Program-made: the position numbers and the translations under genes
The notes under the pieces: model-generated
What the model saw: the letters and a program-made list of their open reading frames with translations, nothing else
Database searches by the model: none
What the model was told of the DNA's origin: nothing
Assembly (NCBI GenBank): GCA_963693285.1
Contig: OY848918.1
Coordinates: 8,497,156 to 8,561,155 of the forward strand
Direction: 5' to 3'
DNA length: 64,000 nucleotides
From: Xestospongia muta
Lineage: Eukaryota > Porifera > Demospongiae > Haplosclerida > Petrosiidae
Shown: piece by piece, positions 1 through 64,000 of the stretch
Layout of the letters: each line of letters starts with the position of its first letter
Position numbering within the stretch: position 1 is the stretch's first letter

Positions 1-776
1 TTAATAATAACTAGTACTAGAGTTGTCATATCCTCATCTAAATATCATGGTAAGACTATTTACATATAGGTAATATTACTTATATAAACTGTAATAGTAT
101 CAAAATCATTGATAATTATACATAGTTCATATTCTACAACAGTAATGATCACAAGTGATTCATACAGAATATGTAAGTGTAGGTGCAATGATATATATTT
201 TTTATAATTAATATAGCGACTACACGTACATGTCCTTTCATATCCTTGTCAACTTCAACAAATACTATGTCTTCACAGTCAACTAGTAGTATGACATACA
301 TAATCTCATTGAACACTATCTTTTTTTTACATTGTAGATACAATTTATTTAAGTTCTTTAATGATTTCTACTTTTAAAGTGACTGTATCTTCAACTGTAA
401 CTACTTCAACTTGTCCAGGTACATTATAATAATAGTTGAAGTTTATATAATTCTCTTGCCCATTACAGCTATTGTAAACCAACAAACATCATGTTTAGCA
501 GGTAATAAAACAAACATGTTACATTAATAAATTATTTACTTAACAGTGAGTATATGTATACCAGTCAGTATGTTCCTCTCTTCTCTATTAACTGCTGTTA
601 TTACTACACTTATTGTCTATCTCATTATGAGGAGGAGGAGCTACAATAAAGACACTCCACCCACTACTACTACCCAATTAGGTCCAATATATGATGATGT
701 TAAGTTACCAGATACCTCAGAACAAAAAGTGATCATTGAATTACAAGGAAATACTGCTTATGGATATATTACTTAG
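1..776 (+). CDS. S1: 3' part of short-tail receptor gene (5' end outside window)
   Basis: Only the 3' exons are inside the window. A first exon ends at about 49 with a GTAAGA donor and matches the end of an FN3-coding exon elsewhere in the cluster. Small Ser/Thr-rich pieces follow (around 230-290 and 400-420, limits uncertain) and probably form a stalk. The last exon is 547-776 after a CAG acceptor. It encodes a hydrophobic helix, an RRR stop-transfer, a Thr-rich stretch, PIYDDV and TAYGYI, ending in TAG at 774-776. The same cassette recurs in S2, N1, F2, S4 and S5. Seen: membrane helix and two tail tyrosine motifs. Inferred: a type I surface receptor whose tyrosines could be phosphorylated. 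An AATAAA at 952-957 could be the poly(A) signal, but the DNA is too AT-rich to be sure. The 46258-47150 copy is a close relative over its whole length. Confidence 0.6.
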
Positions 777-1395
777 AGAATTTCATACTTTATATCATAA
801 AATAGACATTTTTGGACATGATTGTGTCAAGTTTTAAGTGTTACATGTATAAGTTATACATAATATTTGATGAAAATTAGATTTTATTAATTTAAATGAC
901 CTAGAATGCTAAGTATGTTGAGACTAAAGAGAGACTTGCAGTTATTATTACAATAAAAATGGAGATTAATAACTTCAGGTCAGTAAGATTGGTAAATGTA
1001 CATAGTCCTTTCAACAAAAGCAGCAAGATTTAACAAATTATTTTATCTTATAATGTTGATTATGTTAAGAATCTATAAATCCTTTATACTAGACTCTACA
1101 TCTTTATTGCTCAACATATATAATTTTGTAATTTATTCAAACAACACTCGCAGTTATTACTCAATAAACTTCATTCAATTTCTAGTTTGATTGTTTCCAC
1201 TTTCAGAGTGAAAATATTTTAATGAGTAAATAATCTTTATTATTAGTCAGTAAAGTGGAAGTATAATGCAATGTTAATCCCCCTATATATTATTAGTAAA
1301 AGAATTCTCATCAAAGGTCCAGCAATTGATTTAAAACACACACAATACAAGCATGTCAAACTCAAATTTGTATATTGACCAATTAATCCTAATAT
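777..1395. other. Spacer between S1 and L1
   Basis: No coding exon is supported here. The sequence is AT-rich. Parts from about 1100 to 1390 are repeated upstream of L7 (43380-43620), so this is shared 5' flank of L-type genes. Confidence 0.5.
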
Positions 1396-1470
1396 AAACT
1401 CAACCCACATAACACACCACCTCCATGTATAAATAAGTCTAACAGGTATCATTGTCGTTCATAAATCCAT
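1396..1470 (+). promoter_or_regulatory. Conserved L-type promoter block, TATA box of L1
   Basis: A block starting CTCAACCCACA and running through the TATA region is shared upstream of L1, L2, L4, L5, L7 and L9. Here it holds a perfect TATAAATA at 1428-1435, 77 nt before the ATG at 1505. The other copies mostly read CATAAATA at the same distance. The conservation and fixed distance suggest a core promoter; the transcription start is not known. Confidence 0.55.
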
Positions 1471-1504
1471 TGTGTCATAATGATAGTCTACCTATCGAGT
1501 CAAA

Positions 1505-3873
1505 ATGAAAAAGTATAGTACAATATTGATTTGTCTTCTCTTACCAGTCATAAGTGAGTCAATATATTATAACACAATATTTGTAATTTATTTCTTATGG
1601 TTTATATAGAAGCTTCAGTTATAAGTCTAGACTGTAATCATGGAGTATGTCCACAGACACAAGGAGCACTCACTTGTACAATGACAGGAAGTAGAACATA
1701 TTGGTATTCTCTTCCATTTGCTACAGTAAGTTCTGGACAAATAAATAATAATAATACTGTGTTTACTGCTGGTCTTGTGAGTGTTAATAATCCTGGACTA
1801 ACAACTAATTTAAGTTTTATTGCCACTACTGATAAGAATGGAACACAAGTCAGGTGTGTTGATGTAGTAGATACAAACTCAATGATTTGTTATGATGTTA
1901 TGTATGTCGTTAACAATATCATATATAACTAACATGTACTATCAATATAAGGTCCTCCAAGTGATGCTCCTACAGGACTGGTTGTTACAGGTCACACAAC
2001 CATTCAGTCATCTTTACTGGTCACCTCCTACTCTTCATCCTAACTGTATAGTTAACTACACTGTTGAGATCATGACAACCAGTGATAATATATTGATCAG
2101 TAATCTTAATACTAGTAGTAATGTCAGCTGGGTTTATCTACATTATAACAGTGGTACCAGTTAATATACTAGGAGATGGATACCCTAATAAGACTATAGG
2201 TTATTTAAATATTATTATAAAATATGTTATGTTTACTTCTCATACAGTTATCATTCCTGATGAGGAACCAATAATTACTAGTACTAGTATTGTAACAATA
2301 TCATCTGAACATTGTAAAAGTGTTCAATATAACATACAAAATTAATTACATATCATTTGTATTAGTAACACCAGTAAATGTAACTAGTCTCTTTTCTACA
2401 ACTGTAAGTGATACATCAATTATTAGTAAGTGTAAAACATTTATTATCACTTACTTAATGATGAATATAGAAACTTTGGTCCCTTTGATGTCTTTATTAC
2501 AAAGTGCAACTAAAACAGGTACAATATCTTTAAACTCAACAGGTATGTCCTTAGAAATTATTATAATTTAAGTATTACAATATAATGAAATGTCTATTTC
2601 TATTTGACAATAGCAGTAATCTCTACCACAACATCAATAACATCTGCTGAAATGTATTATGTTATTGGGACTGTTGGAAGTATTATTGTTTTCATACTAA
2701 TTGCTGTAGTACTAGTTCTAACTGGTTGTATAATGATTAGAAGACAAAATAAAAGTCAGGTGTTCCTATAATTACTTAATCCTTTAATACTCTCATTATA
2801 GACAACAAAGCAAGTGGTAGTCCAGTAACTGTTTCTCTGAGGTCAGTTCAAATATACTAATATTCATTTTAATGATTATACTTTAGAAGTATTAAAGACA
2901 ATAACAGAGAAGAGGTAAGGTATTGTTACTTATATGTACATAGTTAATACCTGTATGAGTAAATAAATGAACATTTATTGATACAAAAGTTGGATTGATC
3001 ATCATAACTCATTATTAGTTTATGTTATCTAATTTGGAATTACTCATCATTTCTTAAAATAATTTGGTCATTACTATAGTTATTTTCAGATCCCACCTAT
3101 GATGAAGTAAACAAGAAACCACAGCCTCTATCTCTACAATATGATGAGGTCCCTCCTCCAGTGCCTCCTTATTTAGCTGATAATGACCAGCCAACTCCTG
3201 AAACACTGTTCCATTGTGAGGATAATCTTTCTGTACCCCATTATAATGATGAACCTGTGATAGGTCAGTATTCTGAAGTCAAGAGAGAGCATATAGCACT
3301 TCATACAGCTGAAGGAAATTATTCTGTTTTGAAGAGAGAAGAGAGAGAAGTCAGTTAAATGTAGGTACACAATCACATGACCATATTATTATAGAGCAGA
3401 GAGAATAACTCTCAGTTACAACAGACTGGTTTGTATTCAACTCTAAATAATGAAGTAAGAGATAATACAGTCAACTATATCATAATAACTTATATCATAT
3501 TAGACAATCAAACCAATTAGAGCCAGAGCTGAGCCAAGAGGAGCTGGAGGTATAATATATGCTGAACTAGGCAATGTCCCTGAGAACAGACCAATGGTAC
3601 CTCCTACATCAAATTTAGAGCATTCTGTTATCTACTCCGATATCAAAGCACCAACTGATCTTAATAAGGTATCTTGTGTGATATAACAATGTTGCCATAA
3701 TCTTCTTTAATTGTCACTAACAGAGGCTCTCTACAAAAGGTATTATGATACAGGCTCAGTTAGGAGAAATGGAGTTACCTCCACCACATCCTCCTAAACC
3801 TGGTCCCAAACCTGGTTTCCATGGCAGTGGAGGCCAGTCAACAACAGTAATTCCCTCTATACATCACCTGTAA
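1505..3873 (+). pseudogene. L1: long-tail Ig/FN3 receptor, ectodomain damaged
   Basis: Exon 1 (1505-1553) codes a signal peptide starting MKKYSTILICLLLPVI. The Ig-like exon starts at 1610, but its 3' end lacks part of the usual sequence and the normal CAG|GTATGT donor. The first FN3 exon (from about 1952) has a 2-nt deletion that shifts the frame. Near 2120 this exon is fused directly to the middle of the second FN3 exon, removing an intron and two half-domains, and the fusion is out of frame. Downstream the copy is well kept: stalk exons, membrane exon from 2614, and the tail exons with PTYDEV, LQYDEV, QYSEV, NYSVL, LYSTL, IIYAEL and VIYSDI, then a proline-rich end and TAA at 3871-3873. One 39-nt stalk exon present in L2, L4 and L5 is missing, as in L9. 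The pattern fits a gene that lost its ectodomain by deletion; a rescuing splice form cannot be excluded. Confidence 0.6.
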
Positions 3874-4131
3874 AATGATTATAACTCACTTCTGACTTAT
3901 ATAATGTTAAATATGTCACTTTTTAGTTCATTATTTTATTTTGTCATGTTTTATATATTAATAGTTTTTAGCTTTTGTCAAACTAGTATCATTTATTTAT
4001 TAACTATAATATGTTAACTAGTATTTGTTTACATATGAACTTCATATGATCACTTTATATCATTATAGCAGCTGTCAGTATTAATTATTAATCGCTAGTA
4101 TTCTCAATATTCGTTGTGACTTATATATATT

Positions 4132-8793: not shown

Positions 8794-11433
8794 ATGAAAA
8801 AGTATGGTACAATGTTGATTTGTCTTCTATTACCAGTCATAAGTGAGTTAATATATAATATTTGTTATACAGCCTTACAGTGAACATAGAAGCTTCAGTT
8901 ACAAGTCTAGACTGTAATCATGGAGTATGTCCACAGACACAAGGAGCAGTCAATTGTACAATAGCCGGAAGTGTAGCAGCTTGGTATTCTCCTCCATCAG
9001 ATAGTACTGCCATTGCTACAGTAAGTTCTGGAGAAGTTGTTAATAGTAAAACTGAGTTTACTGGTGCTCTTGTGAGTGTTAACAATCCTGGACTAACAAC
9101 TAATTTAAGTTTTATTGCCACTACTGATAAGAATGGAACACAAGTCAAGTGTGTTGATACATTTGATATAAACTCAATGACTTGTACTATTATGATATCA
9201 GGTATGTCACTAACAGTATCATATATAACTAATATGTACTATCATTATAAGGTCCTCCAAGTGATGGTCCTACAGGATTGGGTTTTACAGCTCTCACAAA
9301 CACTTCAGTCACTCTTTACTGGTCACCTCCTACTCTTCATCCTAATTGTATAGTTAACTACACTGTTGAGATCAGGACAACCAGTAATAATATATTGATC
9401 AGTAATCTTAGTACTGGTAGTAATATCACCAGTATTAATGTATCTACTGGTCTCAATCAGTCAGTAGAGTATCAATACAGAGTAGTAGGGTCTGATGCTG
9501 TTAATAGATTAGGACCCTATAGTCAATATACTATTTTCACTTTAGATGGTAAGAGTTAGATTATTATAGTTCTCGTGAGGAGTGCTAACTTTTAGTTCTA
9601 CAGGCTGTACCACTAATTAGTTATAATATCACAAAGAATACAGACAACTACACAATTTTTGTAATTTGGGAGGTATGTATTTTTGTTTATAACAACTGAG
9701 TCTAGTTTTTTATTAGTCACTTCCTCTCTCCTCTCGTCCTCCTCTCTTGTACTATAAAGTCTATCACAACATATCAGGTTCACTAACTGTTAATATAACT
9801 ACTGTTACTAACATTACATTGACTGGAATACTAGCTGGATATATCTACATTATAACAGTGGTACCAGTTAATATACTAGGAGATGGATACCCTAATAAGA
9901 CTATAGGTTATTTAAATATTATTATAAAATATGTTATGTTTACTTCTCATACAGTTATCATTCCTGATGAGGAACCAATAATTACTAGTACTAGTATTGT
10001 AACAATATCATCTGAACATTGTAAGAGTATAACATATAAAATTAATTACATATCATTTGTATTAATAACACCAGTAAATGTACCTAGTCTCTTTTCTACA
10101 ACTGTAAGTGATACATCAATTATTAGTAAGTGTGGAACATTTGTTATCACTTACTTAATGATGAATATAGAAACTTTGGTCCCTTTGATGTCTTTATTAC
10201 AAAGTGCAACTAAAACAAGTACAATATCTTTAAACTCAACAGGTATGTCCTTAGAAATTATTATAATTTAAGTATTACAATATAATGAAATGTCTATATA
10301 TATACTCTATTTTTTGTATAGCAGTTTCTATCTATAGCCTGTCAGGTTCATCTCCTACAAGTAATTTAATTAATCTAATATAACATTGCTATTTCTATTT
10401 GACAATAGCAGTAATCACTACCACAACATCATCAACATCTGCTGGAATATATTATGTTATTGGGACTGTTGGAGGTATTATTGTTTTCATACTAATTGCT
10501 GTAGTACTATTTCTAGCTGGTTGTATAATAATTAGAAGACAAAATAAAAGTCAGGTGTTCCTATAATTACTTAATCCATTAATGCTCTCCATATAGACAA
10601 CAAAGCAAGTGGTTGTCCAGTAACTGTTTCTCTGAGGTCAGTTCAAATATACTAATATTCATTTTAATGATTATACTTTAGAAGTATTAAAGACAATAAC
10701 AGAGAAGAAGTAAGGTATTGTTACTTATATGTACATAGTTAATACCTGCATGAGTAAATGAACATTTATTGATACAAAAATGTGATTGATCATCATGACT
10801 CATTATTAGTTTATGTCAATCTAATTTGGAGTTACTCATCATTTCTTAAAATAATTTGGTCCTTACTATAGTTATCTTCAGATCCCAACTATGCTGAAGT
10901 AGACAAGAATCCACAACTTTTATCTCTACAATATGATGAAGTCGCTCCTCCAGTGCCTCCTTATTTAGCTGATAATGACCATTTACCTTCTGAACCACTG
11001 CTTTATTCTGAGGATAATCCTTCTGTACCCCCTTATAATGAGGAACCTGTGATAGTTCAGTATTTTGAAGTCAAGAGAGAGCATATAGCACTTCATACAG
11101 CTGAAGGAAATTATTCTGTTTTGAAGAGAGAAGAGAGAGAAGTCAGTTAAATGTAGGTACACAATCACATGACTATATTATAATTACAGAACAGAGAGAA
11201 TAATTCTCAGTTACAACAGACTGGTTTGTATTCAACTCTAAATAATGAAGTAAGATATAATACAGTCAATTATATCATAATAACTTATATCATATTAGAT
11301 AAAAAAACCAATTGGAGCTAGAGCTGAGCCTAAAGGAGTTAGAAATATAATACATGCTGAACTAGGCAATGTCCCTAAGAACAGACCAATGGTACCTCAA
11401 CAAAAGACAACAAACCTCATGTTTAACAGGTAA
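8794..11433 (+). CDS. L2: long-tail Ig/FN3 receptor with hybrid, shortened tail
   Basis: Exons in phase: signal peptide 8794-8842; Ig-like 8881-9201; FN3-1 9252-9548; FN3-2 9596-9672 and 9717 to about 10125; stalk 10171-10242 and 10322-10360; membrane exon 10409-10549; tail exons 10597-10636, 10682-10709, 10872-11141, 11190-11249 and 11299-11433. About 645 aa if the 45-nt stretch after 10020 is read through. That stretch has no stop and has lost the TAG acceptor seen in L5. The tail keeps NYAEV, LQYDEV, VQYFEV, NYSVL and LYSTL. The usual IIYAEL is IIHAEL, so that tyrosine is lost. The exon then runs into sequence from the S-type stalk and stops at TAA 11431-11433, so VIYSDI and the proline-rich end are absent. 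Ectodomain and membrane helix look functional; the tail end is a chimera. Expected in the plasma membrane as a type I protein. Confidence 0.65.
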
Positions 11434-11698
11434 TTAAACAAATGCGTTATATTACTGAATTGTTTACTTAACAGTGAGTATACCAGTCAGTATGTTCTTT
11501 TCTTCTCTATAAACTGCTGTTATTACTACACTTATTGTCTATCTCATTATGAGAAGGAGGAGCTACAATAAAGACACTCCACCCACTACTACTACCCAAT
11601 TAGGTCCATTATATGATGATGTTAAGTTACCAGAGACCTCAGAACATAAAGAGATCATTGAATTACAAGGAAATACTGCTTATGGATATATTAATTAA
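11434..11698 (+). pseudogene. S-type membrane/tail exon with nonsense codon, behind L2
   Basis: The exon at 11475-11698 matches the S-type membrane cassette, including PLYDDV and TAYGYI, but the helix is cut by TAA at 11510-11512 where other copies have TTA. The preceding stalk-like piece ends in phase 2, whereas this exon needs phase 1. Splicing from L2 would therefore also be out of frame. It is a relic of an S gene whose 5' part was replaced by L2. Confidence 0.7.
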
Positions 11699-14516: not shown

Positions 14517-16414
14517 ATGAAGAAGTATGCAAGACTGGTTTACTTTCTCTTTTTTCTTATATGTAAGTTATCATTGAATTATTTTTCATACACACACGCT
14601 TACACATTGCAAAAAATCTGTATACCTACCTACAGGTAGCACAGAAGCTTCAGTTACAAGTCTAGAATGTAATAATGGAGTATGTCCACAGACACAAGGA
14701 GCACTCACTTGTACAATAACAGGAAGTGTAGCATCTTGGTATTTTCCTCCATCAGATAGTACTCCCATTGCTACAGTAACAATCTCTGGACAAGTTAGTA
14801 ATGTTGGTAATGCTGGATTTACTGCTGCTCTTGTGAGCAGTACTTCTGGACTAACAACTAATTTAAGTTTTATTGCCACTACTGATAAGAATGGAACACA
14901 AGTCAGGTGTAGTGATGTAATAGATACAAACTCAATGACTTGTACTATTATGATATCAGGTATGTCACTAACAGTATCATATATAAGTAACATGTACTAT
15001 CATTATAAGGTCCTCCAAGTGATGCTCCTACAAGACTGGGTTTTATAGCTCTCACAAACACTTCAGTCACTCTTTACTGGTCACCTCCTACTCTTTATCC
15101 TAATTGTATAGTTAACTACACTGTTGAGATCATGACAACCAGTGATAATATATTGATCAGTAGTCTTAATACTGGTAGTAATATCACCAGTATTAATGTA
15201 TCTTCTGGTCTCTCTCAGTCAGTAGAGTATCAGTACAGAGTAGTAGGGTCTGATGCTATTAATAGATTAGGACTCTATACTCAATATACTGTGTTCACTC
15301 TGGATGGTATGAATTGAATAATTTTTATCTTAATTAATACTTTATTAGTTCTACAAGCTGTGCCACTAATCACTTATAACAATACAAAAAATATAGAAAA
15401 CAACACTATTCTTATACAATGGGAGGTATAAATATATTATTTATGACTTGATATTATTCTAGTTTCATTTAGTCTCCTCCTCTCTCCTCTTGTCCTCCTC
15501 TCTTGTACTACAAAGTCTATCACAACATATCAGGTTCACTAACTGTTAATATAACTACTGTTACTAACATTACATTGATTGGAGTACTAGCTGGATATAC
15601 CTACATCATAACAGTGGTACCAGTTAATATACTAGGAGATGGATACCCTAATAAGACTATAGGTTATTTAAATATTATTATAAAGTGTGTTACATTTACT
15701 TCTCATACAGTTATCATTCCTAAAGAACAAATAGTTTCAATATGTTTTAATAGTGAGAAAAATAAATAAAGGTATTAACTTTCATTAATGTTGTGTATTC
15801 CATTGTTAGTTTCACAAATAACATCAATAATGCGAAGTGGGTCTTTAACAACTTCAGGTAACATTAGGCTAATCAATGACTACAGTCATACTCCAAATTT
15901 ATAATGACTTATGCTATTATTTGTCTTTAATATATAGCAAATAATATTATGTCATCAATTTCCACTACTAATACATTTATTTCAAGTGCTATCACCAGTA
16001 TTGTTCCATCTGCCACTATAACATCAACCACATTGACAACTACATCAATAATTCTATTGTCAGGTAAATCCATTAATAACTCTGCTATTAAAATTAAATA
16101 TATAATTATGTATGCAGATGAACTGACAGTTACACTTTTATCAGGTAACTAACTTTACAAGATATAATTATGAACTTTATATTATAGTTGCTATACCAGT
16201 CAGTATGTTCCTCTCTTCTCTATTAACTGCTGTTATTACTACACTTATTGTCTATCTCATTATGAGAAGGAGGAGCTACAATAAAAACACTCCACCCACT
16301 ACTACTACCCAATTAGGTCCAATATATGATGATGTTAAGTTACCAGAGACATCAGAACAGAAAGAGATCATTGAATTACAAGGAAATACTGCTTATGGAT
16401 ATATTCATCATTAG
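14517..16414 (+). CDS. S2: intact short-tail Ig/FN3 receptor
   Basis: Nine exons agree in phase and give 483 aa: 14517-14562 (signal, MKKYARLVYFLFFLIC), 14636-14959 (Ig-like), 15010-15306 (FN3-1), 15349-15425 and 15473-15752 (FN3-2), 15810-15857, 15938-16063 and 16118-16144 (Ser/Thr-rich stalk), 16188-16414 (membrane and tail). The Ig-like domain (about residues 16-123) has LEC, VCP, LTC, W, VRC and MTC. FN3 domains lie at about 124-222 and 223-340. The membrane helix follows residue 412, with RRR as stop-transfer; tail tyrosines are in PIYDDV (Y455) and TAYGYI (Y478). Many NxS/T sites suggest N-glycosylation. The 15752 donor (A|GTGAGA) was chosen because it alone keeps frame. The signal exon differs from L genes, and the L-type promoter block is absent, so expression may differ. 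Ligand and function unknown. This is one of the three best models in the window. Confidence 0.75.
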
Positions 16415-42063: not shown

Positions 42064-42346
42064 TGGAGACATCAAAGGAATTAACTAGACCATTTACTTA
42101 TATAACAAGTGAATTAACAGGTTTTGGAATGCTTATCACAAAACTAATCAGATCATCTTACAAATACACACACATGTACTTGTACTAGTCTCAACAACAC
42201 CGACACATAACTCAATAATTACTGGTTAGTTTAGTTTACATTAACTATTATAACATAATATGATGTATTTCATTTCCTTTTATATCATATATATACTCCA
42301 TATCTTATTTATCCTTGCAAAAATGTAAATCCTACTGAGAAATAAG

Positions 42347-45732: not shown

Positions 45733-46257
45733 ACAAGCCTGATATCATAACACCAAACACCAAACTTCATCCTTACTCTCATTTACAAAAACCTCAACTT
45801 CTTCCCTCATCTCCTGTAAATCAACTTCCTCCCAAATCTGTCACTCCTCAGCAACCTTTTTCTCTTAACCAATTTGTCCGTCATCCTCCGCATCTCCAGG
45901 ACTTAATGAACAATCTAGCTTCTCTGTTGCTAACTCTATTTAGTCCATCTCTCTCTCCTTCAAATCCAGCTCATTAAATATCTTACACTTCAATACCAGA
46001 AGTCTCCTACCTAAATTAGATGATCTTGTTCTTATATGTTCTTCCTCCTCACCTGATATTGTTTGCATTTCTGAGTCCTGGTTGTCTTCTGACATTTCCG
46101 ACAATGAGATCTCTGTACCTAACTATCACTGTGTTTGTAGAGACCATTCCCACCATGGTGGTGGAATAGCTGTTTGTATTAAATCTTCACTTTCATTCAA
46201 AGTAATCCCATCCCCCTTGAATCTTGAACTCATTCTTCTCTCAGTCACTATTTCTAA
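45733..46257 (+). mobile_element. Fragment of a non-LTR retrotransposon (endonuclease part)
   Basis: From about 45970 one frame reads LNILHFNTRSLLPKLDDL, then PDIVCISESWL and HHGGGIAVCI. This is the pattern of the N-terminal part of an AP-type endonuclease from LINE elements. A Pro-rich frame precedes it (45741-45977), shifted by one base, perhaps the end of the upstream coding part. The element stops at 46257, before the catalytic C-terminal half and with no reverse transcriptase. The junction with FN3-2 sequence shares GTGGTACCAG, which suggests microhomology joining. The exact LINE clade cannot be told. Confidence 0.65.
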
Positions 46258-47150
46258 GTGGTACCAGTTAATATAGTAGGAGATGGATACCCTAATAAGA
46301 CTATAGGTTACTTAAATATTATTATAAAATGTGTTATGTTTACTTCTCATACAGTTATCACTAATGATGAGAAACCAATAATAACTAGTACTATAGTTGT
46401 CATATTGTCATCTAAATATCATGGTAAGACTATTTACATATAGGTAATAATACTTATATAAACTATAATAGTATCAAAATCAATGATAAATATACATAGT
46501 TCATATTCTACAACATTAATGATCACAAGTAATTCATCCAGAATACGTAAGTATAGGTTCAATGATATATATATATATATATTGAATATAGCAACTACAT
46601 GTACATGTCCTTTCATGTCCTTGTCAACTTCAACAAGTACTATGTCTTCACACTCAACTAGCAGTATGTTGTAGAAAACCTCAATGAACAGTGATCTATT
46701 TCTTTACATTGCAAATACAATTTATTTAAGTTATGTAATGATTTCTACTTTGAAAGTGATTGTATCTTCAACTGTAATTACTTCAACTTGTCCAAATACA
46801 TCATAATAATAATAGAATTAGTTTAGACAATTATCTTGCCATTACAGCTAATTTAAACCAACAAACATCATATTTAGCAGGTAATATATAAAGCAAACAT
46901 GTTACATTATTGAATTATTTACTTAATAGTGAGTATACCAGTCAGTATGTTCCTTTCTTTTCTATTAACTGCTGTTATTACTACACTTATTGTCTATCTC
47001 ATTATGAGAAGGAGGAGCTACAATAAAGACACTCCACCCACTATTACTACCCAATTAGGTCCGATATATGATGATATTAAGTTACCAGAGATCTCACAAC
47101 ATAAAGGGATCATTGAATATACAAGAAAAGTCTGCTTATGGATATATTAA
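46258..47150 (+). pseudogene. S4: 3' part of short-tail receptor
   Basis: Begins in the FN3-2 second half directly after the LINE piece, then follows S1 closely through the stalk exons to the membrane cassette (from about 46931). The helix, RRR and PIYDDI are intact. Near 47115 a base change and insertion turn the usual TAYGYI end into a shifted VCLWIY and stop. No signal, Ig-like or FN3-1 exons. Confidence 0.6.
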
Positions 47151-47304
47151 TTAAAGAATTTCATACTTTATATCATAAAATAAACATTTTTGGACATGAT
47201 TGTATCAATTTTTAAGTGTTACATGTACATGTTAAATACACTATTTGATGAAGTTTAGATTTTATTAACCTAGGATTGTAAGCATGTTGTAGTTTATTTC
47301 ATAT

Positions 47305-49219
47305 AGTAAACATAGAAGCTACAGTTAATTACCAGTGTAGACTGTAATCATGTGGAGTATGCTCACAGACACAAGGAGCACTCATTTGTACAATAACAGG
47401 GAGATTTACAGCTTGGTATTCTCTTCCATCAGATGATAGTCCCAATGCTACAGTAAGTTCTGGACTAGTTGGTAATGTTGATAATACTGGGTTTACTGCT
47501 GCTCTTGTGAGCAAAACTTCTGGTCTAACAACTATTTTAAGTTTTATTGCCACTACTAATAAGAATGGAACACAAGTCAGGTGTGTTGATTTAATAGATA
47601 TAAACTCAAGTACTTGGTACTATTATGATATCAGGTATGTCACTAACAGTATCATATATAACTAACATGTACTATCATTATAAGGTCCTCCAAATGATGC
47701 TCCTACAGGACTAGGTTTTACAGCTCTCACAAACACTTCAGTCACTCTCTATTGGTCATCTCCTACTCTTCATCCTAACTGTATAGTTAACTACACTGTT
47801 GAGATCAGGACAACAAGTGATAATATATTGATCAGTAGTCTTAGTACTGGTAGTAATATCACCAGTATTAATGTATCTACTGCTCTTTCTCAATCAGTGA
47901 AGTATCAGTACAGAGTAGTTGGGTCTGATGTTATCAATAGATTAGTACCCTATAGTCAATATACTATGTTCACTCTGGATGATATAAATTATTAGTTTTA
48001 ATATTTCATTAGGTAATTTGATTTACTAGTTCCACGAGCTGTGCCAATAATCAACTATAATAATACTAACAATACAGAGGACTTTACTATTTTTTTTGGT
48101 AGGTATAACATTATATATATTCATTTGATAATATTCTAATTTCATTTAATCGACTCCTCTCTCCTCTCATCCTCCTCTCTTGTACTACAAAATCTATCAC
48201 AACATATCAGGTTCACTAACTGTTAATATAACTACTGTTACTAACATTACATTGACTGGAGTACTAGCTGGATATACCTACATTATAACAGTGGTACCAG
48301 TTAATATACTAGGATATGGATACCCTAATAAGACTATAAGTTATTTAAATACTATTATAAAGTGTGTTATGATTACTTCTCATACAGTTATTAGTCCTAA
48401 AGAACCAATAATAACTAATACAATTTCTATTTTTGTAATCATATCATCTGAACATTGTAAGTATTGACATGCACAATATAATATATAATAGAAATTACAT
48501 ATTATTTAGGATTAATAACACCAGTAAATGTGTGTAGTCCCTTTCTTACAACTGTGGTCATTACAAGTGATACATCAACTATTAGTAAGTATAAAATGTT
48601 TATTATTACTCTTAGGTCATGATGAATATAGAAACTTTGGGTCCTTTGATGTCTTTATTACAACATACAACTACAACAAGAACAATTTGTTTAAATGTCC
48701 TTAAAATTATTATAATTTAATTATTACAACATAACGACATTTAAATTTTTTTTTTGTATAGCAGTTTCTATTTACAGTCCTTAAAGTTCATTTCCTACAG
48801 GTACTTTTAATTATTCTAAAATAACATTGCTATTTGTATTTTTGACAACAGCAGCATCATCATCACAACAACATCATCAACATCAGCTGTAATATATCAT
48901 AATATTGGGACTGTTGGAGGTATTATTGTTTTCATACTAATTGCTGTAGTACTAGTTCTAACTGGTTGTATAATGATTAAAAGAAAGAAAAGTCAGGTTT
49001 TCTTATAATTTTTAATGCTTAAAAACTCTAAACGTAGACAACAAACCAAGTGATAGCCAATTAACTTTTTCTCTAAGGTAACCTCATATATACTAATATT
49101 TATTTAAATAATTATACTTTAGTAGTATCAAAGACAATAACAGAGAGGAGGATTAGTATTGTCACTTTAATTGTGAAATGAATATACTAATATTTTCTGT
49201 AGTAGTACATGTTAGTGAC
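47305..49219 (+). pseudogene. L8: duplicate of L7 without signal exon
   Basis: Starts at the Ig-like exon (about 47308), where small insertions break the frame (CATGTGGAG for CATGGAG). No signal exon or promoter block precedes it. From about 47590 it follows L7 almost base for base: extra base at the Ig exon end, lost FN3-1 donor, shortened TTTTTTGGTAG, same small tail exons. The membrane exon (from about 48853) has its own frameshift after the acceptor. It ends where L7 meets the LINE piece, in an inverted repeat. Confidence 0.65.
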
Positions 49220-50171: not shown

Positions 50172-51582
50172 ATGTATCTACTTTCTGTTCTACTGTTGAC
50201 TGTCGGTAAGTCTTAAATCATCATTGGTATTATTTTTTTATTTTCTATGCTACTGTTAGGCTTCTGTGAAGGGGTTGTAAAAGATCTTAGTGTGCTACGC
50301 AATGGACATTATGTGTCTTGCCCAAACGAGCTCTGTCCAGCCTCAGAACAAGTATTCAGATGTACAATTGATGGTCAAGTGCTACAATGGCGATCTTTCT
50401 TCAATGATACAAGTATAGGACAAAGTCTACATCCATTTTCTACTGGCAATTCTGTTAATTCTAATGTGACACAAGGAAATTTTACATTCATTCTAACTAA
50501 CAATACAATACCAACTGTTACATCCATTGCTATTGTGAACTATGGTATTTCTCGTTCTATTGGTAGTGACACATTGAGGTGTACTGATGTACTTGCTGTA
50601 TCCAGTTTGGAATGTTCCTTAATTCAAAAAGGTTACTCAATAATGTAGAGTATAATTATTATACTGATGATACTAGTTTTATCTGACAATTATTCTACCC
50701 TGGTATGCACAAGGTCCAGGTAGTCCTAAGATTATTTTTGACAATTGTCATACATCTTTTTTTTTCTTATATTATTTAAAAGTATGTCTGAACTTATCTC
50801 ACATACTACTGAGACACCATAACTTCAGCTGGATTTTATTAACTTTAGGATGATTTTTTACAATTTAATCTTGTTCTCTTCTAGCTAAATCTGATTCCTG
50901 TGAGTCTGCTTTATTGAGCAATGTACTTATTAATGAAGATAATGCAAGTGCAGTCAATATACATGTGACCTGGTCTACTTCAGACTGTGCTGTAATGTAT
51001 CATTACAAATTAAATCCACCATATGCAAATGCGTCTAATGGTACTACCACAGAAAATTTCACCTCTATTATTGGTATTCCAGCTGATGGAACTCTTTATA
51101 ATGTGATCATAACTCCAATTGATTTTTTGGGAACAAGAGGACCAACTTGTCAGACATCATCATTTTTCTGTAAGAATTAATCATTGAAATGATAATGATT
51201 ATATTAATACTATCGATTTGTTTCAGTGTTAGTTCCATCTCCATTAAGTTGTCCAAGTCCAATTCCAAGTCCAATGATAGGTAATAAAAAACAACTAACC
51301 TCATGTTTATCAGGTAACAAAGCAAACATGTTACATTACTAAATTGTTTACTTAACAGTGAGTATACCAGTCAGTATGTTCCTCTCTTCTCTATTAACTG
51401 CTGTTATTACTACATTTATTGTCTATCTCATTATGAGAAGGAGGAGCTACAATAAAGACACTCCATCCACTACTACTACCCAATTACGTCCCATATATGA
51501 TGATGTTAAGTTACCAGATACTTCAAAACAGAAAGAGATCATTGAATTACAAGGAAATACTGCTTATAGATATACTAATTAG
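50172..51582 (+). CDS. N1: intact N-type receptor, Ig-like plus one FN3, short tail
   Basis: Five exons agree in phase and give 322 aa: 50172-50205 (signal, MYLLSVLLLTVG), 50260-50631 (Ig-like), 50885-51169 (FN3), 51227-51280 (Pro/Ser stalk), 51359-51582 (membrane and tail). The Ig-like domain (about 12-135) has the same landmarks as L/S genes: VSC, LCP, FRCTIDG, W, LRC.D and LEC, but little other identity. The FN3 domain (136-230) keeps W and the LYNV region. The last exon is the S-type cassette with RRR, PIYDDV (Y295) and TAYRYT in place of TAYGYI, so the terminal motif is weakened. The Ig donor (G|GTTACT) is weak, but the phase fits. Codon use and flanks differ from its neighbours, so it is an older branch that acquired, or shares, the S membrane exon. 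Ligand unknown. Confidence 0.7.
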
Positions 51583-57706: not shown

Positions 57707-59759
57707 ATGAAAAAGTATGGTACAATTTTGATTTGTCTTCTATTACCAGTCATAAGTGAGTTAATATATAATATTTGTCAGTATGACTTTATAGTAAACA
57801 TAGAAGCTTCAGTTACAAGACTAGAATGTAATCATGGAGTATGTCTACAGACACAAGGAGCACTCACTTGTAAAATAAATGGCAGTGTAGCAGCTTGGTA
57901 TTCTCCTCCATCAGATAGTACTCCCATTGCTACAGTCTTTTCTGGATTAGTTAGTAATGTTGATAATACTGGGTTTACTGCTGCTCTTGTGAGCAATACT
58001 TCTGGACTAACAACTAATTTAAGTTTTATTGCCACTACTGATAAGAATGGAACACAAGTCAGGTGTGTTGATGTGATAGATACAAATTCAATGACTTGTA
58101 CTATTATAATATCAGGTATGTCATTAACAGTATCATATATAAGTAACATGTACTATCATTATAAGGTCCTCCAAGTGATGCTCCTACAGGACTGGGTTTT
58201 ACAGCTCTTACAAACATTTCAGTCACTCTTTACTGGTCACCTCTTACTCTTCATCCTAACTGTATAGTTAACTACACTGTTGAGATCAGGACAACCAGTG
58301 ATAATATATTGATCAGTAATCTTAGTACTGGTAGTAATATTACCAGTATTAATGTATCTACTGGTCTCTCTCAGTCAGTAGAGTATCAATACAGAGTAGT
58401 AGGGTCTGATGCCGTTAATAGATTAGGACCCTATAGTCAATATACTATGTTCACTTTAGATGGTAAGAGTTAGATTATTCTAGTTCCCTTGAGGAGTGCT
58501 AATTTTTAGTTCTACAAGCTGTACCACTAATCACTTATAATATCATAAAGAATACAGAAAACTATACTATTGTTGTGATTTGGGAGGTATGTATTTCTGT
58601 TTATAATAACTGAGTCTAGTTTTTATTTAGTCTCCTCCTCTCTCCACTCATCCTCCTCTCTTGTATTACAAAGTCTATCATAACATATCAGGTTCACTAA
58701 CTATTAATATAACTACTGTTACTAACATTACATTGACTGGAGTACTAGCTGGATATACCTACATTATAACAGTAGTACCAGTTAATGTACTAGGAGATGG
58801 ATACCCTAATAAGACTATAGGTTATTTAAATATAATTATTATAAAGTATGTTATGTTTACTTCTCATACAGTTATCATTCATGTTGAGGAACCAATAATA
58901 ACTAGTACTAGTATTGTAACAATATCATCTGAACATTGTAAGAGTGTAACATACAAAATTAATTACATATCATTTGTATTAGTAACACCAGTAAATGTAA
59001 CTAGTCTCTTTTCTACAACTGTAAGTGATACATCAATTATTAGTAAGTGAAAAACATTTATTATCACTTACTTAATGATGAATATAGAAACTTTGGTCCC
59101 TTTGATGTCTTTATTACAAAGTGCAACTAAAACAAGCACAATATCTTTAAACTCAACAGGTATCTCCTTAGAAATTATTATAATTTAAGTATTACAATAT
59201 AATGAAATGTCTATTTCTATTTGACAATAGCAGTAATCACTACCACAACATCATCAACATCTGCTGGAATATATTATGCTATTGGGACTGTTGGAAGTAT
59301 TATTGTTTTCATACTAATTGCTGTAGTACTATTTCTAGCTGGTTGTATAATGATTAGAAGACAAAATAAAAGTCAGGTGTTCCTATAATTATTTATATAA
59401 TCCTTTAATACTCTCCATATAGACAACAAAGTAAGTGGTAGTCCAGTAACTGTTTCTCTGAGGTCAGTTCAAATATACTAATATTTATTTTAATGATTTT
59501 ACTTTAGAAGTATTAAAGACAATAACAGAGAAGAGGTAAGGTATTGTTACTTATATGTAGATAGTTAATACCTGCATGAGTAAATGAACATTTATTGATA
59601 CAAAAATGTGATTGATCATCATGACTCATTATTAGTTTATGTTATCTAATTTGGAGTTACTCATCATCTCTTACAATAATTTGGTCCTTTCTATAGTTAT
59701 CTTCAGACCCCACCTATGATGAAGTAAATAAGAAACCACAGCCTCTATCTACAATATGA
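57707..59759 (+). CDS. L9: Ig/FN3 receptor with frameshifted tail
   Basis: Predicted 484 aa. Exons in phase: signal peptide 57707-57755, Ig-like 57795-58115, FN3-1 58166-58462, FN3-2 58510-58586 and 58631-58937, stalk 58983-59042 and 59088-59159, membrane exon 59231-59371, tail 59423-59462, 59508-59535 and 59697-59759. In the large tail exon two bases are missing (TCTACAATATG for TCTCTACAATATG near 59750), giving TGA at 59757-59759. Only PTYDEV remains in the tail. The 39-nt intron 1 is a multiple of three without stops, so retention would add 13 residues in frame. The 39-nt stalk exon of L5 is missing, as in L1. FN3-1 has WSPLTL for WSPPTL. The ectodomain and helix look functional; the tail resembles the L4 situation. 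Confidence 0.65.
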
Positions 59760-61459
59760 TGAGGTCCCACCTCCAGTGCCTCCTTATTTAGCTGATAATG
59801 ACCAGCCACCTCCGAAACCACTGTTCCATTCTGAGGATAATCCTTCTGTACCCTCTTACAATGATGAACATAGGCGGCTGCAGGCCCGGGCATACACGGG
59901 CAATGACCGGGTTGACTTGACCAAGCAATTCTAAATAATACCCTGAACAGATGTTATTACATCATAATTTACATAATAATAAGTGTTTGTTATTACAATA
60001 TTAGTACCCTCAAAGTTATTATGGCTAAACGTCAGGCTTCCTTACTCTCTTTTATTAACAACACCACACTGACTACTAAGAGGTTGAGGATAACAGATTC
60101 CCAAGAGGAAGATACTGATAGTAAGAATAACTTGTACAAACAAGCCTGGAGCATGTTGCATGTTGCATGATCAAGATTCAAGCACAGCATGCACTGATGC
60201 ACAGGAGCACAAGGTCACTGTCACACAGTATGAAAAATCATACAGTACATCTTCCATGTCTAAAATTGCAGTGATTTTATGACTTCATTTTAGTTTATCT
60301 ACCCCTGTAGTTGAACACATTGAGAGAGGATCATCAAATGAAGTTGCTACAGTACTTGATGCACTTCCTTCTACTAGTCTTTCCAGGGATATAGCAAAGA
60401 ATAAAAGTGACAGACCAGTTCAGCCTGAAGGCATTACCTTTCCTTCTAAGATGTATGGGACAGTTAAAAGGTCCTTCCAATCAAGCTGGTATCAGATATT
60501 TCCATGGATCGAGTATTCAGTAGAGAGAGATTGCGTATTCTGTTTTTCTTGCTGTTTTTTTGGAGTTAATGCTGATAGATGTCTAACGTACAGTGGTTTC
60601 TGTGATTGGAAACACGCAGGAACATCTCTGTAACTTGGCTCTACTGCACATCGAAAGAGATGTGTCTAGCAAACTTTGGGACATTCTTGACGAACTAGTT
60701 TTAAAGTTTTCACAGACTCATAAAAACAGTAGCTCCTTTCACATTAATAATATTAATAAATAAACTTAACCACACCCCAATGTGGACCACACCCCTTTTT
60801 CTGCCCGGGTGGAGTTGCAGTTCTGCAGCCGCCTATGATGATGAACCTGTGATAGCTCAGTATTCTGAAGTCAAGCATATAGCACTTCATACAGCTGAAG
60901 GAAATTATTCTGTTTTGAAGAGAGAAGAGAGAGAAGTCAGTTAAACATAGGTACACAATCACATGACTATATTATTATAGAGCAGAGAGAATAATTCTCA
61001 GTTACAACAGACTGGTTTGTATTCAACTCTAAATAATGAAGTAAGATATAATACAGTCAACTATATCATAACAACTTATATCATATTAGACAATCAAACC
61101 AATTGGAGCCAGAGCTGAGCCAAGAGGAGTTAGAAATATAATATATGTTGAACTAGGCAATGTCCCTAAGAACAGACCAATGGTACCTCCTACATCAAAT
61201 TTAGAGCAGTCTGTTATCTACTCTGATATCAAAGCACCAACTGACATTAATAAGGTATTTTATATAATATAACAATGTTGCCATCATCTTCTTTAATTGT
61301 CACTAACAGAGACTCTCTACAAAAGGTATTATGATACAGGCTCAGTTAGGAGAAATGGAGCTACCTCCATCACGTCCTCCTAAACCTGGTCCCAAACCTA
61401 TATCCCATGGCAGTGGAGGCCAGTCAACAACAGTAATTCCCTCTATACATCACCTGTAA
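59760..61459 (+). pseudogene. L9 tail remainder, split by a hAT element
   Basis: After the frameshift the tail exon continues to 59868, is interrupted by the hAT element, and resumes at 60838 with QYSEV and NYSVL (two codons lost, VKHIA for VKREHIA). The LYSTL exon, the IIYVEL/VIYSDI exon (about 61087-61253) and the last exon with SRPPKP to TAA 61457-61459 follow. All are out of reach of the 5' frame unless an alternative splice restores it. Confidence 0.6.
59869..60837 (+). mobile_element. Internally deleted hAT transposon with intact ends
   Basis: 969 bp flanked by an 8-bp target duplication ATGATGAA (59861-59868 and 60838-60845). It has exact 15-bp terminal inverted repeats CATAGGCGGCTGCAG (59869-59883 and 60823-60837) plus a subterminal CCCGGGCA repeat in inverse order. 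It carries a transposase start: exon 60021-60120 (MAKRQASLLSFIN) with donor GTAAGA, and exon from 60311 in matching phase with WYQIFPWIEYS, FCFSCCFF and CDWKHAG, a TTF-type zinc finger region. Near 60629 the sequence jumps to NLALLHIERDVSSKLWDIL, the end of the hAT dimerization domain, up to TAA at 60761-60763. The catalytic middle is deleted, so the copy cannot move itself but could be moved by a full-length relative. The TSD is perfect, so insertion is recent. Confidence 0.88.
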
Positions 61460-61702
61460 AATGATTATAACTCACTGCTGACTTATATATTGTTAAATAT
61501 GCCACCTTTTAGTTCATTATTTTATTTTGTCATGTTTTATATATTAATAGTTTTTAGCTTTTGTCAAACTAGTATAATTTATTTATTAACTATAATATGT
61601 TAACTAGTATTTGTTTACATATCAACTTCATATGATCACTTTGTATGATTATAGCAGCTGTCAGTATTAATTATTAATCACTAGTTTCTCAATATTCATT
61701 GT

Positions 61703-61750
<48 letters not shown>

Positions 61751-63240
61751 GCTAATGTATGTTTATTTAATATATTTACATCATCTGATGCATCATCCTT
61801 ATATCAAAGGTAAACTTATTTTATCTCATAAACAAACACACAGTACTATAGACCACATAAAACATAGAACAGTACACGAAGTAACTTGTGTACTACTTAA
61901 AATTAGTGTTAATTGACTAATGATATATGTATGATTAGCATATACAATAGTGGTAAGGTAAGTGGTAACTGACTGGGTATTTCATTTATTATTATTGTCA
62001 TAACATGAAACTGATAATGATAAAGTTAATTATAAATAGTTTTATTTTACCACAATATTATCAATGAAATATAATAACACAACAAACATGAAACTTACAA
62101 AAATCATCAAAGGAATTAACTAAAAATGGACCAGTTATTTATAAAACAAGCGAGTTAACAAGTTTTGAACTTTTAGTCACAAAATCTAATCAGACCATCT
62201 TCCATAATACATACACATGTACTTGTATAAATATTAATTAAAAGAAGGGTAGCTTATAGAAGCAGTGACTAGATATAGCCTGCTGCCACCACAATAGACA
62301 AAGCCCACCCCACTGAGTCACACCAATGTTAACTTCACCAGATAATGATAAAAAGATGTCTTGTTTATTTTATTTATTTATTGACTAATATATCTTATTT
62401 TTCTAATGTATATAGTTTAATACTTTTACTACCACTCACCCAGACCAACTCTCTGTAATGAAACAGCTATCCAATGGACCATATTGTATGCATTAAAAGC
62501 ATGACTGAGTGAATTAAATAAAGGAGGGAAATCAGAATAGTAGGTAGTTGTAATGGTGGTCTTGAAACCAGATATTCTCCTAGTGAAACTTCTGATTTCA
62601 AGACTGCTTTATTATATTAAAGTCATTTGAATTGCTAGGTATATTCATATATATTTCAGTTGTAAAGTAATCCACCAAATAAGAAATTTTATTTGAATGT
62701 TCTGGCTGTCATTGGCTATCTTCATCAGTAATATTACAAAAAGCATAGAGAGACAGTCAATAAATAAACCTAAAAAGAATAAACAACTAAGATAAGAATG
62801 TACTTTAAAACATGAGGACAATATAAGGATGAATAGTTAAGCTATGTATTAGTATTGGACAAAAGGTTAATATTACTTGTACTACATAATATATAACAAT
62901 ATAACATACTGAGTTATATTAATGTATGAAGTATATGATATGTACTAACTATATATATTATGTAATACTTAGTTGGCAATATTTATCAATTGTGTATGTG
63001 TTTGTATATTATGAACTCATAATGAAATAAACATAGATGATGTTGTTACATATTTCAACTAATTATTTATAGTAAACAGTATACCTTGTACAAACATTAT
63101 TTGAACTATAATCAATACCACTTTTATTATACATGTTACATACATGGTATATAACATATAGTATTAGGTGTTGTTCATGGAACAATGTTAGTTTGTGATC
63201 CAACTATTCCAGGCGATACTTGATGTCATAACAATAATAT
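61460..63240. repeat. Spacer repeat family, copy 4
   Basis: No gene is supported. Close match to 3874-5680, with (AT)n at about 61706-61748 and the minus-strand open stretch near 62460-62690 broken by a deletion. Confidence 0.6.
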
Positions 63241-63830
63241 GTTATAATAAAACAAGTCAGGTGTGTTGGTGTAATAGATACAACTTCAACGACTTGTACT
63301 ATTATAAAATCAGGTATGTCACTAACAGTATCATATATAACTAACAATGTACTATCATTATAAGGTCCTTCAGGGATACTCCTACAGGACTGGGTTTACA
63401 GCCTCTCACAAACACTTCAGTCACTCTCTACTGGTCAATTCACCCTGGATGGCAAGAACTAGAATAAAAAATTATAAGTTCTACAAGCTAATCCATTAAT
63501 CATTTACAATATTACAAAGAATACAGTGAACTACAGGTACTATTAGTACATCATGTGGGAATTAATGGTAGTAACAGATTATTCGTTGTTTTCACAAACT
63601 GCAAGTAAACCGAACACAATATTGTTTACAGTCAAACCTTTATTATGCATTGTTGACATTATATTGTGTAGTTCCAAGAATTCTTTATACATAGCATTGT
63701 ATTTGTTATTACTAACAATGTCATTGGTAATATACTAATTTAATATATTTATTCATTGACTTTGAAATGTGAATTTGTATCAAGAAACCAATTATTGACC
63801 AACAACACAAGCCATATCTGTAATTAAAGG
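63241..63830 (+). pseudogene. Receptor exon scraps before F3
   Basis: Ig-exon 3' end (about 63257-63311), 5' FN3-1 piece (about 63365-63440), first FN3-2 half piece, then the unrecognised open stretch 63553-63738 also seen at 7138 and 37100. Same block as before F1 and F2. Confidence 0.55.
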
Positions 63831-63835
63831 AAAAT

Positions 63836-64000
63836 ATGGTTATGAATTTCAGGTCAGTAATATTAGCAATACTAATACTAGCAGATGGTAAGAAATTACT
63901 AAGAATCAAATAGTTTTAATATCTTAAGTAATATGTTTTATTAGTTCTACAAGCAGTAGCACTACTGACTTATACCATTACTAACAACACAGAGGACTAT
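63836..64000 (+). CDS. F3: start of single-FN3 receptor (runs off the window)
   Basis: Signal exon 63836-63887 (identical in protein to F2: MVMNFRSVILAILILADG) and the start of the FN3 exon at 63945 (VLQAVALLTYTITNNTEDY). Phase is kept (52 nt, phase 1). Whether the gene is complete cannot be seen. Confidence 0.5.

What the first reader, a model, noticed from the sequence alone, without database searches (positions are those of the whole stretch)
1..64000. Tandem cluster of Ig/FN3 receptors with ITIM-like and short tails
About 19 receptor genes or relics in 64 kb share one Ig-like/FN3 ectodomain plan but carry different membrane/tail cassettes. Three are intact by phase (S2, L5, N1), and several have intact ectodomains with altered tails. 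Array expansion, chimeras and abundant pseudogenes are typical of rapidly evolving recognition loci (paired leukocyte receptors, Hydractinia Alr). In a probable sponge this would be a candidate immune or allorecognition locus. The function is inferred.
Basis: partly seen in the sequence, partly recalled or inferred. Interest (0 to 1): 0.9.

Follow-up and report, generated by a model that had tools for sequence, protein, structure and literature searches.

The report
Giant sponge receptor array with ITIMs
A sponge, probably the giant barrel sponge, carries a 1.4-million-base cluster of about a hundred or more cell-surface receptor gene copies that share and swap their outer recognition parts but carry two kinds of tyrosine-motif tails, a layout known from vertebrate immune receptors and a testable candidate for how sponges recognise self, neighbours or microbes.

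Summary
The array is real and much larger than reported. The window lies inside a 1.4 Mb cluster (C2 7.37-8.75 Mb): 104 near-full Ig-like exon rows, 99 open, and 106 S-type TM/tail rows, 95 open (transcribed). Contig lengths fit Xestospongia muta. Apparent frameshifts and stops in the L stalk fall in two short segments that I model as introns. The L tail has two canonical ITIMs 25 residues apart, the PD-1/BTLA spacing; the S/N tail has an ITSM-type motif. The genome has an SHP2 orthologue and three tandem SH2-SH2-PTP frames. Ig exon and Ig-FN3 intron are as similar between tail classes as within them, while other segments are class-specific. So ectodomain sequence is exchanged between tail types, the hallmark of paired receptors. 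I infer a self/non-self or microbe recognition system with SHP2-type signalling. The Ig fold, expression, polymorphism and ligands remain unshown; allorecognition is a hypothesis.

The parts
14517..14562 (+). S2 exon 1, signal peptide (MKKYARLVYFLFFLIC)
   Evidence: spliced model
14636..14959 (+). S2 exon 2, Ig-like domain
   Evidence: tblastn; model
15010..15306 (+). S2 exon 3, FN3 domain 1
   Evidence: Pfam fn3 was scanned on the S protein of another copy, C2:8650914-8652814
15349..15662 (+). S2 exons 4-5, FN3 domain 2 (15349-15425, 15473-15662)
15711..16144 (+). S2 exons 6-9, Ser/Thr-rich stalk (15711-15752, 15810-15857, 15938-16063, 16118-16144)
16188..16414 (+). S2 exon 10, TM and short tail with GPIYDDV and ITSM-type TAYGYI, tyrosines 23 residues apart
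31106..31154 (+).
31273..31589 (+). L exon 2, Ig-like domain (exact acceptor ambiguous by a few codons)
31640..31936 (+). L exon 3, FN3 domain 1
   Evidence: Pfam fn3 E 9.3e-13
31984..32295 (+). L exons 4-5, FN3 domain 2 (31984-32060, 32106-32295)
32344..32631 (+). L exons 6-8, Ser/Thr-rich stalk (32344-32409, 32455-32514, 32560-32631); the in-frame TGA lies in a modelled 45-nt intron
32798..32938 (+). L exon 9, transmembrane segment without charged residues
33289..33548 (+). L exon 10, tail: TYDEV, LQYDEV, VQYSEV, YSVL and proline-rich stretches
33597..33656 (+). L exon 11, tail: YSTL
33706..33870 (+). L exon 12, tail: ITIM pair IIYAEL and VIYSDI, tyrosines 25 residues apart
33926..34080 (+). 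L exon 13, tail end, proline-rich PRPPKPGPKP
50172..51582 (+). N1 gene, 5 exons (50172-50205, 50260-50631, 50885-51169, 51227-51280, 51359-51582): signal, Ig-like, FN3-like by pattern, Pro-rich stalk, TM plus S-type tail
   Evidence: no Pfam Ig or fn3 match
8794..11463 (+). L gene, open through tail exon T3, tail cut inside exon T4
23299..26245 (+). L gene, open frame if the stalk is read without introns; one GC donor
57707..61464 (+). L gene broken by a roughly 0.95 kb insertion in tail exon T2 (about 59869-60820)
1505..3878 (+). L pseudogene: Ig exon frame broken, FN3 deletion
18554..20715 (+). L relic: Ig 5' part and FN3 domain 2 lost, tail exons open
40901..42068 (+). chimeric relic with a divergent L-type tail exon
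43824..49077 (+). two L-like pseudogenes (43824-45592, 47311-49077), 95% alike, broken Ig exons
558..770 (+). S-type TM/tail exon of a gene that begins left of the window

Best explanation
The window is part of a 1.4 Mb multigene complex of type I membrane receptors in a sponge. Each receptor shows an Ig-like head on one or two FN3 domains and a Ser/Thr-rich or Pro-rich stalk. It signals through one of two tails: L, with seven YxxI/L/V motifs in the window gene including an ITIM pair 25 residues apart, or S/N, with IYDDV plus an ITSM-type TxYxxI motif. Most likely ligand contact triggers phosphorylation of the tails by Src-type kinases and docks SHP2-type tandem-SH2 phosphatases, so the receptors set an inhibitory or threshold signal in a recognition response. 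Ig-FN3 segments are copied between L and S genes, so receptors with the same specificity carry different tails, as in vertebrate paired receptors. Shown here: anatomy, intact genes, motif conservation, sequence exchange between classes, contrasting pN-pS of the Ig-like and FN3 exons, SHP2-type genes. Inferred: Ig fold, surface expression, phosphorylation, SHP2 binding, inhibitory output, recognition role.
For: Complete genes with canonical splicing: 5 of 21 L loci with a full TM exon in the fetched 200 kb, plus one open with an AC acceptor, and 5 of 11 S loci under one stalk model. ITIM pair: all 15 open T4 exons have two canonical ITIM hexamers; 14 give exactly 25 residues, and in the 15th the script counted a hexamer overlapping VIYSDI. 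Five of six T2 tyrosine columns are kept in 27 or 28 of 29 sequences, the sixth in 22, against a mean column majority of 81% (median 86%); two of the five (PPYL, PPYN) are outside YxxI/L/V motifs. S tails, 17 full copies in 200 kb, 3 with stops: TxYxxI in 15, YDDV in 15. Exchange: between-class equals within-class distance for Ig (delta -0.003, p 0.82) and the Ig-FN3 intron (+0.001, p 0.33) but not for upstream sequence, F1-F2a and F2a-F2b introns (+0.17 to +0.29) or exon F2a (+0.06), all p<0.0005. Ig distances are uncorrelated with the six segments tested (r -0.24 to 0.09). Ig pN 0.088, pS 0.065, adjacent intron 0.044; FN3-1 pN 0.052, pS 0.104; contrast of pN-pS: fraction <=0 of 5000 bootstraps 0.0022. 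SHP2 orthologue E 8e-196 to PTPN11, plus three tandem SH2-SH2-PTP frames.
Against: The Ig fold is not confirmed: pLDDT 39.5; Pfam Ig_7 in 2 and Ig_2 in 1 of 13 members, best E 0.02-0.03; best PDB profile match is a sushi-domain protein at E 0.03. Pfam finds neither domain in N1. pN>pS for Ig alone is not significant (fraction <=0 0.0675), and TM, T2 and T4 also give pN slightly above pS. F1 and F2b show small but detectable class differences. No RNA evidence and no demonstrated polymorphism. Opposing activating partners (charged TM, ITAM) were not seen in the tails read. A 17 kb near-copy at 98.96% could be a retained haplotype, which would inflate copy number. The intron model of the stalk is by inference: in some copies the first acceptor TTAG is TTAA and CCAG must serve, and two copies lack both.
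Confidence: 0.6

Rival explanations
1. Allorecognition complex: the ectodomains differ between individuals and mediate self/non-self fusion or rejection, like Hydractinia Alr or the Botryllus fuhc receptors.
For: Large clustered family, rapid turnover, ITIM-type tails, stalked receptors. Sponges distinguish self from non-self grafts (PMC5450542, start of abstract in listing), and a review notes ITIM-type motifs in cnidarian and ascidian allorecognition receptors (PMC12065747 passages). On a 1,454,069-base contig of an unnamed assembly, 28 of 32 listed Ig clusters have a single member at 90% clustering, although this contig is the closest to the 1,554,166-base contig of the present assembly.
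Against: No haplotype of known origin was compared; the origin of that contig is not stated. No grafting or binding data. The Amphimedon graft transcriptome paper holds no mention of immunoglobulin or receptor in its main text (word search). The sponge aggregation factor is the older candidate.
Confidence: 0.3
2. Microbe or symbiont receptors: the array recognises bacteria, and variation is driven by pathogens or symbionts.
For: Sequence exchange between tail types is what CEACAM and Siglec paired receptors show (PMC2832619 passages; PMC5701461 abstract). [quoted passage not shown]
Against: No ligand data; nothing here separates it from allorecognition.
Confidence: 0.3
3. Ordinary adhesion receptors: the copies are near-redundant products of tandem duplication, with tails that bind adaptors in adhesion or growth signalling.
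For: FN3 modules, proline-rich SH3-type tail stretches, FN3 conserved; tandem FN3 arrays are common elsewhere in this genome.
Against: pN-pS is higher in the Ig exon than in FN3; ITIM pair at SHP2 spacing in the T4 exons; exchange concentrated in ectodomain blocks.
Confidence: 0.25
4. Decaying or artefactual array: copy number inflated by retained haplotypes and mostly non-functional relics.
For: Many fragments, an insertion in a tail exon, a 17 kb 98.96% near-copy and a 5.3 kb 97.5% one; only 5 of 21 L loci are complete.
Against: 101 of 106 near-full Ig rows and 95 of 106 S-tail rows lack stops; in the 200 kb five L and five S loci are complete under the models, one further L has an open frame, and N1 is complete.
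Confidence: 0.1

Closest known systems
Vertebrate paired receptors (SIGLEC11/16, CEACAM, CD300)
   Same: Near-identical ectodomains on different signalling tails, maintained by gene conversion; clustered genes; ITIM tails; type I receptors.
   Different: Two FN3 domains under one Ig-like head, no charged TM, both tail types look SHP2-binding rather than opposing, far more copies, sponge host; no Siglec, CEACAM or CD300 chain among the 32 PDB matches of the L ectodomain.
Hydractinia allorecognition complex (Alr family, 41 members)
   Same: Clustered IgSF receptors, ITIM-type motifs.
   Different: FN3 domains and Ser/Thr stalk; sequence homology, allorecognition role and polymorphism not tested. 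Alr details are from review passages and recall.
Botryllus fuhc fester co-receptors (FcoR)
   Same: Type I receptors with Ig domains and ITIM or YxxL motifs in one locus of about 800 kb (review passages).
   Different: Sushi plus C2-type Ig domains instead of FN3; hemITAM forms (motif recalled) not recognised here.
PD-1/BTLA-type SHP2-recruiting receptors
   Same: Two tyrosine motifs 25 residues apart in the L tail; ITIM and ITSM consensus.
   Different: More motifs per tail; binding untested; likely convergent rather than related.
Sponge aggregation factors and sponge adhesion molecules
   Same: Sponge cell-recognition proteins; some sponge adhesion molecules have Ig-like repeats (review passages).
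   Different: Aggregation factors are secreted proteoglycan cores with other domains (recalled); the receptors here are transmembrane with ITIM-type tails.

Membership tests
ITIM/ITSM-bearing inhibitory receptors | S/I/V/LxYxxI/V/L or TxYxxV/I in the cytoplasmic tail | tested here: met
   consensus from PMC8631942 passages; T4 exon 15 of 15 with two ITIM hexamers; S tail TxYxxI 15 of 17
ITIM/ITSM-bearing inhibitory receptors | phosphorylated motif recruits SHP1/SHP2 and inhibits | not testable with these tools
   only the presence of SHP2-type genes was shown
Vertebrate-type paired receptors | similar ectodomains on different tails kept alike by sequence exchange | tested here: met
Vertebrate-type paired receptors | activating partner with a charged TM residue or ITAM | tested here: not met
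   no charged residue in the L or S TM segments read, no ITAM spacing in the tails read; most of the 1.4 Mb was not read
Immunoglobulin superfamily | Ig fold or significant match to an Ig profile | tested here: inconclusive
   Cys-Trp-Cys pattern conserved; pLDDT 39.5; no significant Pfam Ig match
FN3-containing receptors | significant fn3 match | tested here: met
   Pfam fn3, two stretches, E 9.3e-13 (L) and 1.8e-13 (S); titin FN3 pair E 7e-26; not met for N1
Allorecognition genes (Alr, fuhc) | extreme polymorphism between individuals and co-segregation with fusion or rejection | not testable with these tools
   one assembly; other contigs of unstated origin
Hydractinia Alr family | sequence homology of the ectodomain to Alr | not tested
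   no Alr sequence was compared

The most novel reading that the evidence does not exclude
This is the histocompatibility complex of a sponge: over a hundred ITIM/ITSM-tailed Ig/FN3 receptors whose recognition heads are shuffled between tail types and differ between individuals, signalling through an expanded SHP2 set. It would place SHP2-type inhibitory control of self recognition in the common ancestor of animals or show a further independent invention.
Probability: 0.28. Interest if true: 0.95.

Novelty: new variant of a known kind. Interest (0 to 1): 0.82.

Why it matters
A review states that candidate allorecognition proteins show no conservation between sponges, cnidarians and ascidians, yet cnidarian and ascidian receptors converge on ITIM-type signalling (PMC12065747 passages). 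A sponge array with the same signalling logic, SHP2-type effectors and exchangeable recognition heads would extend that convergence to Porifera and gives named genes for graft, expression and binding tests. I saw no paper on such a locus in the listings (25 of 30 shown; 20 of 120; 11 of 12; 10 of 10; 10 of 22; 12 of 528, none of the shown naming Porifera); the library is open-licence PMC only, so prior description elsewhere is possible.

Tried and rejected
AlphaFold2 on eight window Ig exons gave mean pLDDT 39.5; no fold search was run on it. The Ig profile against PDB gave ten matches at E 0.03 to 8.5, nine of them a sushi-domain protein over about 35 residues, treated as chance. A full-length L protein found nothing at E <= 0.001 in the protein database, I think because entries there are exon-sized frames; the exon profile found 143. 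Reading the L stalk as one exon made many copies look broken; the aligned copies show that length changes not divisible by three, and the stops, fall in two short segments with GT starts and AG ends, so I took them as introns. The first frame used for the Ig exon was wrong, corrected. Charged-TM pairing was rejected. The contigs 1,454,069, 1,600,931 and 726,659 could not be assigned to a haplotype or species, so no polymorphism claim is made. The insertion in the tail exon looked like a hAT element; Pfam gave no match, so its kind is left open.
Full report
What is there. The window is G000:C2:8497156-8561155 in a 158.03 Mb, 28-contig genome. Contig C2 is 22,145,118 bases, C5 8,747,271 and C1 35,349,711. 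Chromosomes 2, 5 and 1 of the Xestospongia muta assembly odXesMuta1.1 are 22.15, 8.75 and 35.36 Mb and its total is 158.52 Mb in 298 scaffolds (PMC12398682, passages). I infer that species; no tool named it.

Extent. The Ig-like exon of the window's L gene gives 150 listed rows out of 251 candidates, of which 150 were scored. 106 of them cover at least 90 of 106 residues at 70% identity or more; 5 of these contain stops; 104 lie at C2 7.37-8.69 Mb and two elsewhere (C1:33166671, C2:14852219) (counted). The L tail exon gives 97 rows: 34 cover 87-88 of 89 residues at 82% identity or more, none with a stop, at C2 8.23-8.63 Mb. The S tail/TM exon gives 150 listed rows out of 211 candidates; 106 cover at least 60 of 71 residues at 77% identity or more, 11 with stops, at C2 7.37-8.74 Mb (transcribed, which also counts one row at 68%). 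N1's Ig exon has one further copy, 97% identical, at C2:8661742, and two distant relatives at 40-41% on C3 near 11.25 Mb.

Gene models. I read 200 kb (C2:8460001-8660000) exon by exon. L: signal, Ig-like, FN3, FN3 in two exons, three stalk exons, TM, four tail exons; 9 of its 12 introns are 45-55 nt (coordinates). Alignment of the stalk region in 21 copies showed that length differences not divisible by three, and the in-frame stops, fall in two segments with GT starts and AG ends. With these as introns, 5 of 21 L loci with a full TM exon are complete with canonical sites, and one more has an open frame with one AC acceptor. Two of the five use a CCAG acceptor where others have TTAG, and two further copies lack both. 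An isolated copy at 14.85 Mb ends its TM exon in the same phase, which supports the TM donor used. S: 5 of 11 loci are complete under one stalk model; of the other six, two are broken and four were not modelled by the script. Of 29 full-length + strand Ig exons 23 are open. In the window, S2, L and N1 are complete.

Domains. Two fn3 matches are significant in L and S and the FN3 pair matches titin in PDB (E 7e-26). The Ig-like head keeps a Cys-Trp-Cys pattern and three further cysteines in all 13 sequences aligned, but no Ig profile gives a significant match and the structure model is of no use. In N1 Pfam finds neither domain. The name Ig-like is a pattern judgement.

Tails. The ITIM and ITSM consensus and the 25-residue spacing in PD-1 and BTLA are from PMC8631942 (passages). 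All 15 open T4 exons carry two ITIM hexamers; in 14 they are IxYxxL and VIYSDI, 25 residues apart, and in the fifteenth the script took a hexamer overlapping VIYSDI. In T2, LQYDEV is canonical in 13 of 17. In 17 local plus 12 distant T2 exons five of six tyrosine columns are kept in 27 or 28 of 29 and one in 22; mean column majority 81%, median 86%; two of the five conserved tyrosines are not in YxxI/L/V motifs. Distant T2 exons add up to two further YSVL-type motifs. S tails: 17 full copies in 200 kb, 3 with stops; YDDV in 15, TxYxxI in 15, and IYD/LYD and TA[YC] 22 or 23 residues apart in all 17. Of six distant S-like tails fetched (39-69% identity), all keep a YD motif and NTAY, five as NTAYxxI. 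Neither TM has a charged residue.

Exchange between tail classes. I compared 16 L and 11 S genes with four full ectodomain exons, then 24 after dropping three recent duplicates. Between-class distance equals within-class distance for the Ig exon (0.083; delta -0.003, p 0.82) and the Ig-FN3 intron (0.047; +0.001, p 0.33). For the F1 and F2b exons the difference is small though detectable (+0.006, p<0.0005; +0.003, p 0.02), as is that of the segment after F2b (+0.017, p 0.008). For exon F2a it is +0.057 and for upstream sequence, F1-F2a intron and F2a-F2b intron +0.17 to +0.29 (all p<0.0005). An intron is among the shared segments, so shared protein constraint cannot explain it; patchy gene conversion or recombination can. 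Ig distances do not correlate with the six segments tested (r -0.24 to 0.09), while the class-specific middle block is internally correlated (r 0.66-0.71). One S gene's Ig exon is 1.6% from an L gene's.

Selection. Nei-Gojobori: Ig pN 0.088, pS 0.065; FN3-1 0.052 and 0.104; FN3-2b 0.050 and 0.080. Adjacent intron 0.044. The Ig excess alone is not significant (0.0675), the Ig-FN3 contrast is (fraction 0.0022 of 5000 bootstraps). TM, T2 and T4 also give pN slightly above pS, not significantly, which weakens a claim of selection on the head alone.

Effectors. The genome has four frames with two SH2 domains whose matches start 318 or 312 bases apart, followed by a PTP domain: C5:8741067-8742560 and three in tandem at C3:11956215-11961741. 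The C5 protein matches PTPN11 at E 8e-196 and PTPN6 at 6e-174. The C3 three were placed by domain order only.

Relatives elsewhere. The Ig profile finds 143 exon-sized proteins, 120 listed. The listed ones come from nine long contigs and 17 short ones. Contigs of 841,867 and 1,554,166 bases hold exact copies of frames read here (12 of 120 matched exactly). The 1,554,166 and 1,454,069 sets are closest to each other, with median best identity 84-85%, no closer than copies within a contig, and few pairs above 92%; 28 of the 32 listed clusters of the 1,454,069 contig have one member. If that contig is the alternate haplotype, the two haplotypes share little; it may instead be another individual or species. 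The database is clustered at 90%, which hides close alleles.

Interpretation. Clustered, fast-turning-over receptors, heads exchanged between two tyrosine-motif tails, and SHP2-type effectors fit a recognition system with inhibitory or threshold signalling. The closest working parallel is the paired receptors of vertebrates, where gene conversion keeps the ligand-binding exons of SIGLEC11/16 and CEACAM pairs alike (PMC5701461 abstract; PMC2832619 passages). I do not file it in those families: the activating-partner feature was not met. Earlier work on a congener reported SRCR and NLR-type domain counts; the passages I saw mention immunoglobulin and fibronectin domains only in combination with SRCR or in microbes (PMC4772301 passages). 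Whether the array serves allorecognition or microbe recognition is open.

Noticed in passing
G000:C3:11956215-11961741 and C5:8741067-8742560: Three tandem SH2-SH2-PTP open frames and one SHP2 orthologue: an expanded SHP2-type set in a sponge.
   Followed up: partly
G000:C7 0.3-0.7, C11 3.7-4.0, C12 0.97-1.33, C2 9.4-9.7 Mb: Large tandem arrays of tyrosine-phosphatase domains, which near C7, C11 and C12 coincide with FN3 arrays, suggesting expanded receptor-type phosphatases.
   Followed up: no
G000:C8:6531713-6583593: Tandem array of SH2-bearing frames of about 400-510 residues, possibly Src-type kinases.
   Followed up: no
window 59869-60820: Insertion of about 0.95 kb with short inverted ends in tail exon T2 of the L gene at 57707; its 116-codon frame has no Pfam match.
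   Followed up: partly
window 45944-46273: LINE-type endonuclease fragment (Exo_endo_phos, E 1.2e-6) between receptor copies.
   Followed up: no
G000:C2 7.49-7.85 Mb, - strand: A further class of S-like TM/tails (39-42% identity, IIYDLP and NTAYEHI-type) on the opposite strand.
   Followed up: partly
G000:C2:8507167-8524110 and 8562764-8579685: 17 kb near-copy at 98.96%, either a recent tandem duplication or a retained haplotype.
   Followed up: no
window, upstream of several signal-peptide exons (e.g. 6232-6647, 22051-22464, 56286-56865): A recurring relic of Ig end, FN3 start and F2b about 0.8 kb or more before the next gene, as if part of the duplicating unit.
   Followed up: no
G000:C3:11250836-11261432, - strand: Two open frames 40-41% identical to the N1 Ig-like exon, outside the cluster.
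   Followed up: no
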